Assembly (NCBI GenBank): GCA_014359405.1
Contig: JACIZN010000002.1
Span: forward strand, 5,848 to 38,783
Source: Candidatus Caldatribacterium sp.
GTDB taxonomy: Bacteria > Atribacterota > Atribacteria > Atribacterales > Caldatribacteriaceae
Direction of reading: 5' to 3'
Length of the DNA stretch: 32,936 bases
The notes beneath the pieces were generated by a model. It worked only from the letters and a program-made list of their open reading frames with translations, was not told the DNA's origin and made no database searches. Shown piece by piece: positions 24,363 to 31,226 of the stretch. Positions within the stretch are counted from its first letter, which is position 1. Each line of letters starts with the position of its first letter. Both the position numbers and the translations under genes were made by a program.

Positions 24363-24897
24363 CCCTCTCCCCCTTTCGGAGCTGCGAAAAGAGCACGAGG
24401 AAAATACCAATCCCAAGGAGGTAGTCGCCAACGCTCACCACAAAGGGCCGCCGAAAAAGAAGGGAAAAGTAAGGAAGGATATCCCCCAGGAAGTTGAGGC
24501 GCGTTCCCTCCCCCATGAGGATGTACTCAGGATATAAGCCCCTCCTGAGGCGCTCGGCAATGAAAAAAAGCCCCAAGCGCTCGGCCATTTCGCCTGATGC
24601 CGGCATCCTCCCACCGTTTGCCGCCACCACCAGGAAGTTGCAGAAGGCCCCGAGACTCACAAGGGGCATGCCGAAAAGGCGAATCCCAAAAAGCGTCCCC
24701 AAAAAGACAAGCGCCATGCCGATGGCCTGGGAAAGAGGAACAAGCCTCTCGGAGAACCCAAGGGCAAGAAAGCGAACGAGAAACCCTCCCACCACCATCG
24801 GGAGAAAGGGGGAAGGAAGGCGGGAGAGCCCCCTGAGTTTTCCCCCAAAAAGAAGACCAAGGAGGAGTCCCGCAAGGAAAAAATCAACGAGCATCAT
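24346..24897 (-). CDS. DUF5317-like integral membrane protein
   Basis: This protein of about 183 residues has four or five hydrophobic segments. It begins MMLVDFFLAGLLLGLLFGGKLRGLSRL, has a central NFLVVAANGGRMPAS turn followed by an amphipathic stretch, and ends in a further helix. That NxGxMP-type turn between helices is characteristic of the DUF5317 family, whose function is unknown. The start overlaps the end of the HD-GYP gene by 14 bases and its end overlaps galU by 17, so the three are translationally linked. ATG 24894 is an equally possible start. No catalytic motif is visible. Confidence 0.75.
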   Translation of the reverse strand: MMLVDFFLAGLLLGLLFGGKLRGLSRLPSPFLPMVVGGFLVRFLALGFSERLVPLSQAIGMALVFLGTLFGIRLFGMPLVSLGAFCNFLVVAANGGRMPASGEMAERLGLFFIAERLRRGLYPEYILMGEGTRLNFLGDILPYFSLLFRRPFVVSVGDYLLGIGIFLVLFSQLRKGERDGKAD

Positions 24898-26131
24898 GGC
24901 GCCATTCCCCGCTTTCCACAATCTCCTTCAAAACCGCAAGAACCTCTGGGTCGAAATGCCCCTCTTCCTCGTTCTCCATGATTTCTAAGGCCTCTTCCGC
25001 GGTGTACGCCCGCCGGTACGGGCGCTCAGAAGTCAGGGCATCGAAAACATCTGCCACCGCCACAATCCGGGCCTCAAGGGGAATCTCGTCCTTGCGCTTC
25101 CCGTGAGGATACCCCTTGCCATTGCACCGCTCATGGTGCGCAAGAATCACCTCCGCCACCTGGCGGAGGAAGTTCACGTCCTTCACAATCCGGTACCCAA
25201 TCAGGGGATGTTCCTGAATCACCCGGTACTCCTCAGGAGTGAGCCTCCCGGGTTTGCTGAGGATTGTGTCGGCAATGCCAATCTTCCCCACATCGTGGAG
25301 AATTGCTGCGTACTCAATGATTTCCTTCTGCTTCCCCGAGAGGTTCATACGATCGGCAATGCGGAGGGCAAGCTGCGCCACCCGGGCAGAATGCCCCCGG
25401 GTGTAAGGGTCCTTGGCGTCCACAGCAGCAGTGAGGGCCCGCAGGAGCTCAAGGTGCATGCGCTTTGTGTCCACGAAGAGCTTAAAGGAGTACCGGGCTA
25501 TAAGGAGAGGCAGGAAAAAGAGGGCGATGCCTGCGTAGCCCACGTAGCTGTACACGAAGTAGAGGAGGAGAGAGAAGGGGAAAAGGGCGAAGTACTGGAG
25601 GAGGATGCCGTTGATACTCTGCTTCCAAATTGCCGAAAGGGGAATACCACCGCTCAGGGAAACAACAGTCAGCACAAGGAGGACGTTGCACAGAAAGAAA
25701 GCCCCAATGGAAGCTCCAACCGCAAGGTAAAAGGGAGGCTCGTTCCAGTGAAAGCCGTACCCCCCAAGGCGCTCAAAGACAAGGCCGGACAGGAAAGCGG
25801 AGATGGCGTACTGGGAACCGTTGAAAAGAGCGGCGTACCATTTCGATTTCAGGGTACCAAAGAACATGCCCAGGAAAGCCACCAGCGCAGAGAGAAAAGG
25901 CGAAGAGAGAAGAATCACCGTGTAAAGGGGGGCAAAGCTCACCGAAATGGCCGTCTCAGGCCGAAGGTACACCGGGAGGAGCTCCGCAACGAGAGTCAAG
26001 ACGGTGAAAGTCGCAAAAAGTGACAGAAGATGAGAAGACCAGAAGATGTGGGAAACCGAAAACCCCAAAATCCCAAGACCTGCCCCGATGACACAGGCTA
26101 AGTACAGAAAAAGCCAAAACTTTCTTTTCAT
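24884..26131 (-). CDS. Membrane-anchored HD-GYP domain phosphodiesterase
   Basis: This 415-residue protein has about six or seven transmembrane helices in the first 215 residues (a MASE-like sensor region) and a C-terminal HD-GYP domain: AVDAKDPYTRGHSARVA, ILHDVGKIGI, HPLIGYRI, LAHHERCNGKGYPHG and VADVFDALTSERPYR. Family members hydrolyse cyclic di-GMP or related dinucleotides. The HHExxDGxGYP motif has Asn for Asp, a substitution seen elsewhere, and all metal-binding His/Asp residues are present. It signals from the membrane and is paired with a DUF5317-like protein. No GGDEF protein is in the window. Confidence 0.9.
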   Translation of the reverse strand: MKRKFWLFLYLACVIGAGLGILGFSVSHIFWSSHLLSLFATFTVLTLVAELLPVYLRPETAISVSFAPLYTVILLSSPFLSALVAFLGMFFGTLKSKWYAALFNGSQYAISAFLSGLVFERLGGYGFHWNEPPFYLAVGASIGAFFLCNVLLVLTVVSLSGGIPLSAIWKQSINGILLQYFALFPFSLLLYFVYSYVGYAGIALFFLPLLIARYSFKLFVDTKRMHLELLRALTAAVDAKDPYTRGHSARVAQLALRIADRMNLSGKQKEIIEYAAILHDVGKIGIADTILSKPGRLTPEEYRVIQEHPLIGYRIVKDVNFLRQVAEVILAHHERCNGKGYPHGKRKDEIPLEARIVAVADVFDALTSERPYRRAYTAEEALEIMENEEEGHFDPEVLAVLKEIVESGEWRHDAR

Positions 26132-26169
26132 TCTCTACAACTCATCGGGTGGGCCAACAGGGGCAAGGC

Positions 26170-26250
26170 TCAAGGCCTCCAGCTAAAACCAGCCCCGCTG
26201 GCAATAATGATGGCCAGCAGGCCAAGGAGCACGCTCAGGACCTTCGCCAT
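26170..26250 (-). CDS. 26-residue single-helix membrane peptide
   Basis: A short frame from ATG 26250 to TGA 26170 encodes a 26-residue peptide with a Lys near the N-terminus, one hydrophobic helix (VLSVLLGLLAIIIASGAGF) and a WRP tail. A strong GGAGGG site lies 6 bases before the ATG, better than that of most neighbours. It sits between the conserved unknown gene and the HD-GYP gene, on their strand, in otherwise non-coding DNA. A 7-bp inverted repeat (26276-26300) lies upstream. It may be a small regulator of a membrane protein such as the HD-GYP sensor; that role is inference. Confidence 0.65.
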   Translation of the reverse strand: MAKVLSVLLGLLAIIIASGAGFSWRP

Positions 26251-26319
26251 TGTGGACCCTCCTTCGTACGTTTCTCATCCCCTTCCGCTTTTCGGGGATG
26301 GCCACCGCTCCGCTCGTGG

Positions 26320-26994
26320 TTACGAAGAAACTGTTGGCCCACCCTCCTCCTCGAAGCGCTCTATGTGGAAAACGAGTTTCCGGTTAACGGCATCAAGAGT
26401 CGACCGGGCAACGGCCTCGTAGATATCCTCCCGCACTAAAGCTGTGCCGACGAGAAGATCCTCTTCTTTCCGTGCCCCTCCCCGGGCGTAGTCCACGAAG
26501 GTGAGAACGACCTCGATTTCCCCTAAGTGGTGCGTGGAAACGTTGTGGAGCATGAAGAGCGTATCCCCCACAATCTGGTTGAGGCAGTTGAGCGTCGCTT
26601 TGGCTACTAAGAAAGCGTGGCTTCGAACCCGAGAGGCACTCTCGGTGGCCACGCCTTTGTAGATTCGCTCCCCGAGCTTCACCTCAACCTCGACTTCCAC
26701 GGCATCGGGGGTCTTCTTCCACCCAAGGCCCCAGAGGACCAGACGGGGCACAAACCACTTCGTTTCTTCCTCAACGTCAAAGGTGACGACGCTGATTTTC
26801 TTGTGGTCGATGTCGATACCAAAGCGGGCTTTGAGGAGGGTCTCGATATCCCGAACGAGGAGCTTGGGGGATTTCGTCGAACGGGCAAGGACGTGGACCT
26901 CTTCAATGCTTGAGTCGCCCACAACTTTTGCGTTGAGGACCCCGTCCAGGCACTCGATGGCTTTTTCCAGGGCTCTCAAGTCGAGCTTTGTCAT
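26320..26994 (-). CDS. Conserved-looking protein of unknown function
   Basis: This 224-residue soluble protein has no signal or membrane segment. The N-terminal half (about 1-75) reads LEKAIECLDGVLNAKVVGDSSIEEVHVLARSTKSPKLLVRDIETLLKARFGIDIDHKKISVV, an alpha/beta pattern that I have the impression recurs in Firmicutes and Thermotogae proteins of unknown role. The second half is a beta-rich domain with an ESASRVRSHAFLVAKATLNCLNQ helix. It starts 2 bases after the stop of the hibernation factor gene, which suggests a link to ribosome or stationary-phase physiology, but no function can be claimed. Confidence 0.7.
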   Translation of the reverse strand: MTKLDLRALEKAIECLDGVLNAKVVGDSSIEEVHVLARSTKSPKLLVRDIETLLKARFGIDIDHKKISVVTFDVEEETKWFVPRLVLWGLGWKKTPDAVEVEVEVKLGERIYKGVATESASRVRSHAFLVAKATLNCLNQIVGDTLFMLHNVSTHHLGEIEVVLTFVDYARGGARKEEDLLVGTALVREDIYEAVARSTLDAVNRKLVFHIERFEEEGGPTVSS

Positions 26995-31149: not shown

Positions 31150-31226
31150 TGGCGCCCCCAAGCGGATTTGAACCGCTGCCGTCGCCTTGAAAGGGCGATG
31201 TCCTAACCTGGCTAGACGATGGGGGC
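31150..31226 (-). tRNA. tRNA-Glu (anticodon UUC)
   Basis: This 77-base gene folds into a full cloverleaf: acceptor GCCCCCA pairing with TGGGGGC, a D-arm closed by GTC/GAC, an anticodon arm TCGCC-CTTTCAA-GGCGA with anticodon TTC, and a T-arm AGCGG-TTCAAAT-CCGCT. The discriminator is G, and CCA is encoded. It has its own promoter just upstream, and the next gene downstream on this strand is xylulokinase. Confidence 0.96.

What the first reader, a model, noticed from the sequence alone, without database searches (positions are those of the whole stretch)
26170..26250. 26-residue membrane peptide next to an HD-GYP sensor
A strong ribosome site, one clean hydrophobic helix and a place inside an operon make this a likely real small protein of the kind missed by annotation. 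Its neighbours are a membrane HD-GYP protein and a multi-pass protein of unknown function, so it may tune membrane signalling.
Basis: partly seen in the sequence, partly recalled or inferred. Interest (0 to 1): 0.5.

Follow-up and report, generated by a model that had tools for sequence, protein, structure and literature searches.

The report
Membrane micropeptide inside a structured RNA
A 26-residue membrane peptide gene next to a bacterial signalling enzyme is real, is shared by two bacterial phyla, and lies inside a conserved folded RNA that is missing from the RNA catalogue searched here.

Summary
The ORF at 26170-26250 (minus strand) is real and unusually conserved. Matches occur in 19 of 25 genomes of its order and 19 of 25 others of its phylum; all 30 loci fetched lie beside the same HD-GYP gene. 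In Bacillota, a model built only from Atribacterota peptides finds it behind 59 of 111 copies of the upstream gene P224, with 0 on the reverse strand and 0 in shuffles. It follows HD-GYP presence: 58 of 65 loci with it, 0 of 39 without. Codon differences are mostly synonymous.

A long stem (P1) closes around it and covaries. A covarying hairpin and AGCGRA motifs precede the start in most loci. Rfam has no match.

The HD-GYP's MASE9 domain is predicted to have an ECF S-component fold. Best explanation: a single-pass microprotein partner of MASE9-HD-GYP, translationally coupled through P1. Conservation and pairing are shown; partnership and coupling are inferred. Rivals: leader peptide, secreted signal, toxin-like peptide.

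The parts
26170..26250 (-). 26-codon ORF, hydrophobic single-helix microprotein with conserved LA[SG]GA motif and Trp-containing tail
26147..26344 (-). structured RNA domain that encloses the ORF (P1 arm to P1 arm)
   Evidence: fold z -4.43, 0 of 200 shuffles as stable; covariation across loci
26331..26344 (-). P1 5' arm GGGTGGGCCAACAG, inside the last codons of the upstream gene
26147..26160 (-). P1 3' arm CTGTTGGCCCACCC, 9 nt after the peptide stop and 15 nt before the HD-GYP start
26305..26314 (-). conserved motif AGCGGAGCGG
   Evidence: alignment A3; its four invariant columns lie in this motif
26276..26300 (-). P3 hairpin CATCCCC / GGGGATG with a conserved AGCGGA in the loop
26258..26263 (-). 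Shine-Dalgarno AGGAGG of the peptide; partly paired in the window's predicted fold (26260-26268 with 26321-26329), a pairing not shown to be conserved
   Evidence: negative or weak tests
24884..26131 (-). MASE9-HD-GYP gene (predicted cyclic di-GMP phosphodiesterase); MASE9 part predicted to have the ECF S-component fold
26320..26994 (-). P224: uncharacterised two-domain alpha/beta protein, upstream neighbour of the module in the loci checked that are not cut by contig ends
26997..27536 (-). hibernation promoting factor (ribosomal S30AE family), first gene of the conserved run

Best explanation
The ORF encodes a single-pass membrane microprotein, mostly 24-29 residues, that works as a dedicated partner of the MASE9-HD-GYP phosphodiesterase encoded just after it. 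SHOWN: the peptide is under protein-level selection; in the loci examined it occurs only with an HD-GYP gene of this family downstream; it sits inside a structured RNA made of a covarying long-range stem P1 around the ORF and, in most loci, a covarying hairpin P3 and AGCGRA motifs; the MASE9 domain of the window's protein is predicted with high confidence to have the fold of an ECF-transporter S component. INFERRED: the N terminus (K/R) stays in the cytoplasm, the helix packs through its small residues (A..LA[SG]GA) against the S-component-like bundle, and the Trp/Arg tail sits at the outer face, near where S components bind ligand, so that it sets how ligand occupancy controls c-di-GMP breakdown. 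INFERRED: P1 couples the two translations. Its 3' arm begins a median 12 nt after the peptide stop and ends a median 22 nt before the HD-GYP start, so a ribosome finishing the peptide would melt P1 and free the HD-GYP start, giving matched production. What the conserved hairpin and motifs sense or bind is not known.
For: Frame conservation and synteny HPF-P224-peptide-HD-GYP in Atribacterota. Same cassette in Bacillota: 59 of 111 P224 loci score >=8 with a model trained on Atribacterota peptides only, 0 on the reverse strand, 0 in one shuffle per locus. Peptide with HD-GYP 58 of 65, without 0 of 39. Peptide search of 299 genomes (model partly built from the same loci): 67 of 70 matches at E<=1e-3 lie behind a P224 copy on the same contig; of the other three, L206 at a contig edge and L205 behind a divergent P224 have HD-GYP downstream, one lies inside a 502-codon frame. 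RNA model: 43 matches at E<=1e-4 in 299 genomes, one per genome, 43 of 43 behind P224 (compared by eye). P1 beats all 20 shuffles in 85 of 95 loci; cognate arms score 34.4 against 16.0 for swapped arms, and the own partner is at least as good as any other in 75 of 95. P3: 151 double-change cells against 44.2 shuffled, score 0.540 against 0.194. Geometry of P1. MASE9 model pLDDT 94.7; the first 22 structural neighbours are S components, CbiM or metal-transporter relatives, Z 11.6-16.7, next entry Z 7.8.
Against: No direct evidence of translation, membrane insertion or binding to MASE9. MASE9 proteins also occur without the module: 4 of 24 MASE9 matches in 25 genomes lie elsewhere (second copies in G099, G114, G217, and G083), and one module genome (G253) has no MASE9 match. 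Seven HD-GYP loci lack a peptide above threshold: four carry 19-22-residue ORFs, three of them with Arg in the core and poor as membrane helices, one (L178) is just below threshold, two carry unrelated signal-peptide-like ORFs. Pairing of the peptide's Shine-Dalgarno is not a conserved feature: 0.652 against 0.633 in shuffles, weak covariation. The P3 pattern is not recognised in seven of eight loci given from the distant families of the phylum. Relatedness of loci inflates the shuffle controls, and A4 was fitted to P3; pairs with a change on both sides were reached by 60 of 500 shuffles. Foldseek alone gave no match below E 0.001 for MASE9 (best 8.2e-3).
Confidence: 0.48

Rival explanations
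1. Leader peptide or arrest peptide: the act of translating (or stalling on) the short ORF controls P1 and thereby HD-GYP expression, and the peptide itself has no later job.
For: The RNA spans the ORF, P1 abuts the stop codon and the HD-GYP start, one RNA match per genome directly upstream of one gene, the most conserved residues lie towards the C terminus.
Against: Conservation also covers the N-terminal charge and the hydrophobic core rather than only the last codons; the C-terminal end varies (RP, R, G, GG, I, L, W); codons change synonymously. Known arrest peptides are recalled, not tested.
Confidence: 0.24
2. Precursor of a secreted oligopeptide signal: cleavage after the small-small-Ala motif releases 4-6 residues such as GFSWR or NYRW, which bind the outer face of the S-component-like MASE9 domain.
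For: 71 of 78 anchored distinct peptides have Ala at the would-be -1 position and 75 of 78 have tails of 4-6 residues; two loci carry signal-peptide-like ORFs instead (L179, L180); weak sub-threshold hits to quorum-peptide models NprX (2 of 31 members, best E 0.033) and Phr (1 of 31, E 0.05).
Against: The anchor was chosen on that motif and on a tail of 3-9 residues, so these numbers are not independent; 7 of 85 distinct peptides have no such anchor; no processing gene was looked for; tails look more constant between phyla than pheromones usually are (recalled).
Confidence: 0.17
3. Toxin-like hydrophobic peptide of the type I kind, with the mRNA held silent by 5'-3' pairing.
For: Small hydrophobic peptide with Trp/Arg tail inside an mRNA closed by a 5'-3' helix, as in the AapA family (passages read).
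Against: Single copy in the own genome and one RNA match per genome in 43 others, at one kind of site across two phyla, with HD-GYP; no sigma-70-like promoter on either strand around it in the window; Shine-Dalgarno pairing not conserved.
Confidence: 0.05
4. Chance ORF inside a conserved RNA element.
For: The RNA is conserved in its own right.
Against: Synonymous fraction 0.678 in frame against 0.118 and 0.039 off frame; same peptide pattern across two phyla with 85 distinct sequences in 95 loci.
Confidence: 0.01

Closest known systems
Small regulatory membrane proteins that bind a membrane partner (KdpF: start of an abstract seen in a search listing; others recalled)
   Same: About 25-30 residues, one helix, co-directional with the partner gene
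   Different: Partner is a MASE9-HD-GYP protein; the ORF lies inside a structured RNA; no family model matches
AapA-type type I toxin mRNAs (PMC6733600, passages read)
   Same: Small toxin ORF in an mRNA closed by a 5'-3' long-distance interaction
   Different: Single-copy, beside HD-GYP in two phyla, no antisense promoter seen in the window, Shine-Dalgarno pairing not conserved
uORF/leader-peptide attenuators and structured leaders found by comparative genomics (PMC8632094, PMC6429828, PMC11109978: term searches and passages only)
   Same: Conserved short ORF with conserved RNA structure in front of one gene
   Different: HD-GYP occurs 0 times in the three main texts; the c-di-GMP-related motif found (ykoW) is an EAL-linked element limited to Thioalkalivibrio
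ECF-transporter S components and CbiM (NikM by recall)
   Same: Predicted fold of the partner's MASE9 domain
   Different: Fused to an HD-GYP output domain; sequence identity only 10-14% in those rows

Membership tests
HD-GYP protein with MASE9 | HD_5/HD and MASE9 domains over curated cut-offs | tested here: met
   HD_5 152.7 bits (27.2), MASE9 48.3 bits (24.3)
ECF S-component fold (MASE9 domain) | S-component fold | tested here: met
   predicted model only; Z up to 16.7 over 160 residues, rmsd 2.8, 22 rows above the next entry at 7.8
ECF S-component fold (MASE9 domain) | binds a vitamin or metal and works with EcfT | not testable with these tools
   no binding data
Known Rfam RNA family | match at or near a curated score | tested here: not met
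   window; 20 loci, gathering score; 7 loci, permissive; no match on the element
Type I toxin | small hydrophobic peptide | tested here: met
Type I toxin | antisense RNA antitoxin | tested here: inconclusive
   no sigma-70-like promoter on either strand at 25900-26600; other promoter types and other loci not covered
Type I toxin | growth inhibition on expression | not testable with these tools
   needs an experiment
Secreted peptide pheromone | signal-peptidase-like small residues before a short tail | tested here: inconclusive
   the anchor was chosen on the motif
Leader/attenuator peptide | structured RNA linking ORF translation to the next gene | tested here: inconclusive
   P1 geometry fits; no expression data
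Known small-protein family | match in Pfam, NCBIfam or PHROGs | tested here: not met
   Searches (a few peptides each; 31 peptides): best E 0.033

The most novel reading that the evidence does not exclude
A new class of structured RNA with a membrane microprotein gene built into it: the RNA domain (P1, P3 and the AGCGRA motifs) is a sensor or protein-binding switch that decides whether the microprotein is made, the microprotein then sits on an ECF-S-like receptor and sets cyclic di-GMP breakdown. RNA, peptide and enzyme evolve as one unit across two phyla.
Probability: 0.33. Interest if true: 0.85.

Novelty: new variant of a known kind. Interest (0 to 1): 0.7.

Why it matters
It adds a microprotein family and a structured RNA, without a match in the Rfam, Pfam, NCBIfam and PHROGs copies searched here, that are tied to one kind of c-di-GMP enzyme in two phyla. 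It offers a testable answer to how a MASE domain receives its signal, which is mostly unknown (recalled): an S-component-like receptor with a one-helix partner. It also gives a compact case where an RNA fold encloses the gene whose product may act on the next gene's product.

Tried and rejected
Rfam at gathering score and with permissive thresholds gave nothing on the element. The idea that the RNA generally hides the peptide's ribosome site was tested three ways and not supported as a conserved feature: pairing of the stretch 5' of P3 with the start region, difference 1.81 (se 0.46, 66 loci) against 1.01 (se 0.40, 29 loci) in a control stretch; pairing of the stretch 5' of the AGCGRA motif with the start region, 19 of 91 above 95% of shuffles, difference 1.42 (se 0.37) and 7 of 75 in the top 5% in the non-redundant set; pairing probability 0.652 against 0.633, 51 of 93 higher. 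An earlier per-locus test gave 20 of 95 at p<=0.05. In the window itself the predicted fold does pair it. A pseudoknot had no clear support (0.51, se 0.31).

Two other unnamed phyla gave 0 of 136 and 0 of 77 genomes; there is no positive control there. PADLOC was not searched. The 95 loci are 28 Atribacterota and 67 Bacillota and include nine loci below or near the peptide threshold that I kept by hand. RNA model R1 missed 14 of the 88 loci given, among them seven of the eight given from the more distant families of the phylum; seven near-duplicates of the 95 were not given. Two of its 76 matches lie elsewhere (L132, L119) and are probably chance; they stayed in A4 and so in the counts. Seven Bacillota loci cut by contig ends were left out of the contingency count. 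That count is by P224 copy, not by genome: its 39 'neither' loci (listed) include L087 and L126, one place fetched twice, where the module stands behind the second of two tandem P224 copies, and L157, whose genome has the module behind another P224 copy (L207). One search used stricter filters that lose weak matches.

Full report
What was reported and what is there. The minus-strand ORF 26170-26250 exists as described. Its upstream neighbour does not look multi-pass: it is P224 (26320-26994), with no Pfam match at E<=0.001 and only one sub-threshold NCBIfam match (E 0.06) for the window's copy, a good two-domain model (pLDDT 85.8), and a C-terminal part like the LeuA/citramalate-synthase regulatory domain (Z 9.4 over 119 residues, rmsd 3.6; one of nine members weakly matches LeuA_dimer, E 0.0043). 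The downstream gene is a MASE9-HD-GYP protein. Three of the four closest relatives found with P224 are named Candidatus Caldatribacterium, a genus of Atribacterota.

Conservation of the peptide. tblastn with the peptide found matches in 38 of 61 genomes: 19 of 25 of its own order (own genome included), 19 of 25 of other phylum members at E up to 0.39, 0 of 11 outside the phylum. Thirty of these loci were fetched: all 30 have the HD-GYP gene, and 28 of 30 have P224 on the other side; the other two lack P224 within the stretch held. The other eight phylum matches were not inspected. The peptide is more conserved than its neighbours: 68-96% identical within the order, where HD-GYP is about 50-84% and P224 about 44-88%. 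Among 18 order-level copies codon differences are 1560 synonymous and 742 not (0.678; 0.262 expected from random single changes; 0.118 and 0.039 in the other frames).

A second phylum. P224 led to L065 (Candidatus Petromonas tenebris, Bacillota) and L066 (titled Bacillota bacterium). L066 has HPF, P224, a 25-residue peptide and a HD-GYP gene in a row. A profile search with P224 found it in 128 of 299 genomes drawn from the phylum of L066 (one search repeats nearly the same set). I took 111 loci (31 from the searches, 80). A peptide model made only from Atribacterota rows scored >=8 within 450 nt behind P224 in 59 of 111, and in 0 of 111 on the reverse strand and 0 of 111 in one shuffle each. 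Of 104 loci not cut by contig ends, 65 have HD-GYP within 700 nt and 58 of these carry the peptide; 39 do not and none carries it (Fisher p 9e-22; related genomes make that p too small, and two of the 39 are one tandem-copy place whose module stands behind the second copy). The seven HD-GYP loci below threshold have short or deviant ORFs at the same place. A genome-wide search with a broader peptide model, partly built from the same loci, gave 70 matches at E<=1e-3, of which 67 lie just behind P224 on the same contig (checked by eye). Of the other three, L206 and L205 also have HD-GYP next, L205 behind a divergent P224 (E 7e-6), and one lies inside a 502-codon frame. Nothing was found in 136 and 77 genomes of two other phyla.

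The RNA. The ORF lies between perfect 14-nt inverted arms, and the 198-nt stretch folds better than all 200 shuffles (z -4.43). The same kind of stem surrounds the ORF elsewhere: the best helix between the stretch before and the stretch after the ORF beats all 20 shuffles in 85 of 95 loci, is 11-23 bp long in 84 of 95, and has 88 distinct 5' arms. Arms pair with their own partner (mean score 34.4) and much less with those of other loci (16.0); the own partner is at least as good as every other in 75 of 95. Examples are GGGTGGGCCAACAG/CTGTTGGCCCACCC (window), AAGGGCCGACA/TGTCGGCCCTT (L106) and ATTGAAGCCGG/CCGGCTTCAAT (L128). Between the 5' arm and the start codon an alignment of 42 sequences from both phyla shows (G)AGCGRAGC with four invariant columns, a hairpin P3 whose loop usually holds UAGCGGA, then GAG and a strong Shine-Dalgarno. 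Among column pairs that are at least 70% canonical, the five with the highest mutual information all belong to P3. The counted structure has 80.9% paired cells against 58.0 shuffled, 151 double-change cells against 44.2, covariation score 0.540 against 0.194 shuffled and at most 0.191 for slid versions; the number of pairs with a double change (8) was reached by 60 of 500 shuffles. That alignment was fitted to P3, which leans towards it. A covariance model finds 74 of 88 loci at the expected place, including 32 of the 46 not used to build it; it misses most loci of the phylum's distant families, which keep P1 but not a recognisable P3. In 299 genomes it gives 43 matches at E<=1e-4, one per genome, 43 of 43 directly behind P224 (compared by eye). 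In the window's own genome it gives one strong match (E 1.2e-8; next 0.03). Rfam has nothing here.

How it may work. The 3' arm of P1 starts a median 12 nt behind the peptide stop (within 20 nt in 60 of 82 loci) and ends a median 22 nt before the chosen HD-GYP start (within 30 nt in 63 of 82, starts chosen by script). A ribosome ending on the peptide would cover the 3' arm, and a closed P1 would crowd the HD-GYP start. This geometry suggests translational coupling; it is an inference. Hiding of the peptide's own ribosome site was tested and is not a conserved feature. The MASE9 domain of the partner has a confident model (pLDDT 94.7, 67 sequences). Foldseek alone gave no match below E 0.001, but its first 20 are S components or CbiM, and realignment gives 22 such rows at Z 11.6-16.7, then 7.8 (NikM as a name for two rows is recalled). 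A receptor-like membrane bundle with an adjacent one-helix peptide of small residues suggests a partner helix. The same facts would also fit a secreted tail peptide acting as ligand. In 25 genomes searched, 21 have a MASE9 match, 18 of them one and 3 of them two; 20 of the 24 matches are the HD-GYP gene of the module and 4 are not, so MASE9 proteins can do without the peptide.

Literature. Terms for HD-GYP with structured RNA, small ORF or small membrane protein were searched. Three comparative RNA surveys were searched for terms in the main text only: HD-GYP does not occur, and the c-di-GMP-linked motif found is ykoW in Thioalkalivibrio. Their supplements were not seen. MASE9 as a term was found in one unrelated paper. 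The closest anatomical parallel, read in passages only, is the AapA3 toxin mRNA. I found no description of this module; these searches cover open-licence full texts and Rfam 15 only.

Verdict. The larger finding is a conserved RNA-plus-microprotein unit that, in the loci examined, stands between P224 and an HD-GYP gene. What the RNA senses and what the peptide does are open.

Noticed in passing
window 24884-26131 (MASE9 part modelled: 25502-26131): MASE9 is predicted to have the ECF-transporter S-component fold, which suggests a small-molecule receptor on the HD-GYP protein.
   Followed up: partly
window 26320-26994: P224 is a widespread Bacillota/Atribacterota protein without a family model for the window's copy; fold of a ferredoxin-like N part and a LeuA-regulatory-like C part.
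   Followed up: partly
L065:3694-4487: AgrD-like and AgrB-like ORFs on the opposite strand beside P224 in Candidatus Petromonas tenebris (names recalled from sequence pattern, not searched).
   Followed up: no
L106:4873-4959: A c-di-GMP-I riboswitch near the HD-GYP locus of one genome.
   Followed up: no
L070:285-665, L075:286-709, L085:252-642: cspA thermoregulator matches upstream of P224; L085 reaches the gathering score, L070 and L075 stay below it.
   Followed up: no
L087/L126 and L207: Tandem or second P224 copies; in L207 the module stands behind a longer second copy.
   Followed up: partly
L179, L180: Module loci in which the peptide is replaced by a signal-peptide-like ORF ending in DTFLMK while a P1 stem is kept.
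   Followed up: no
L094: A P224 copy followed by a SpoVS-like ORF instead of the module (SpoVS name recalled).
   Followed up: no
window 31153-31226: A tRNA gene on the minus strand.
   Followed up: no
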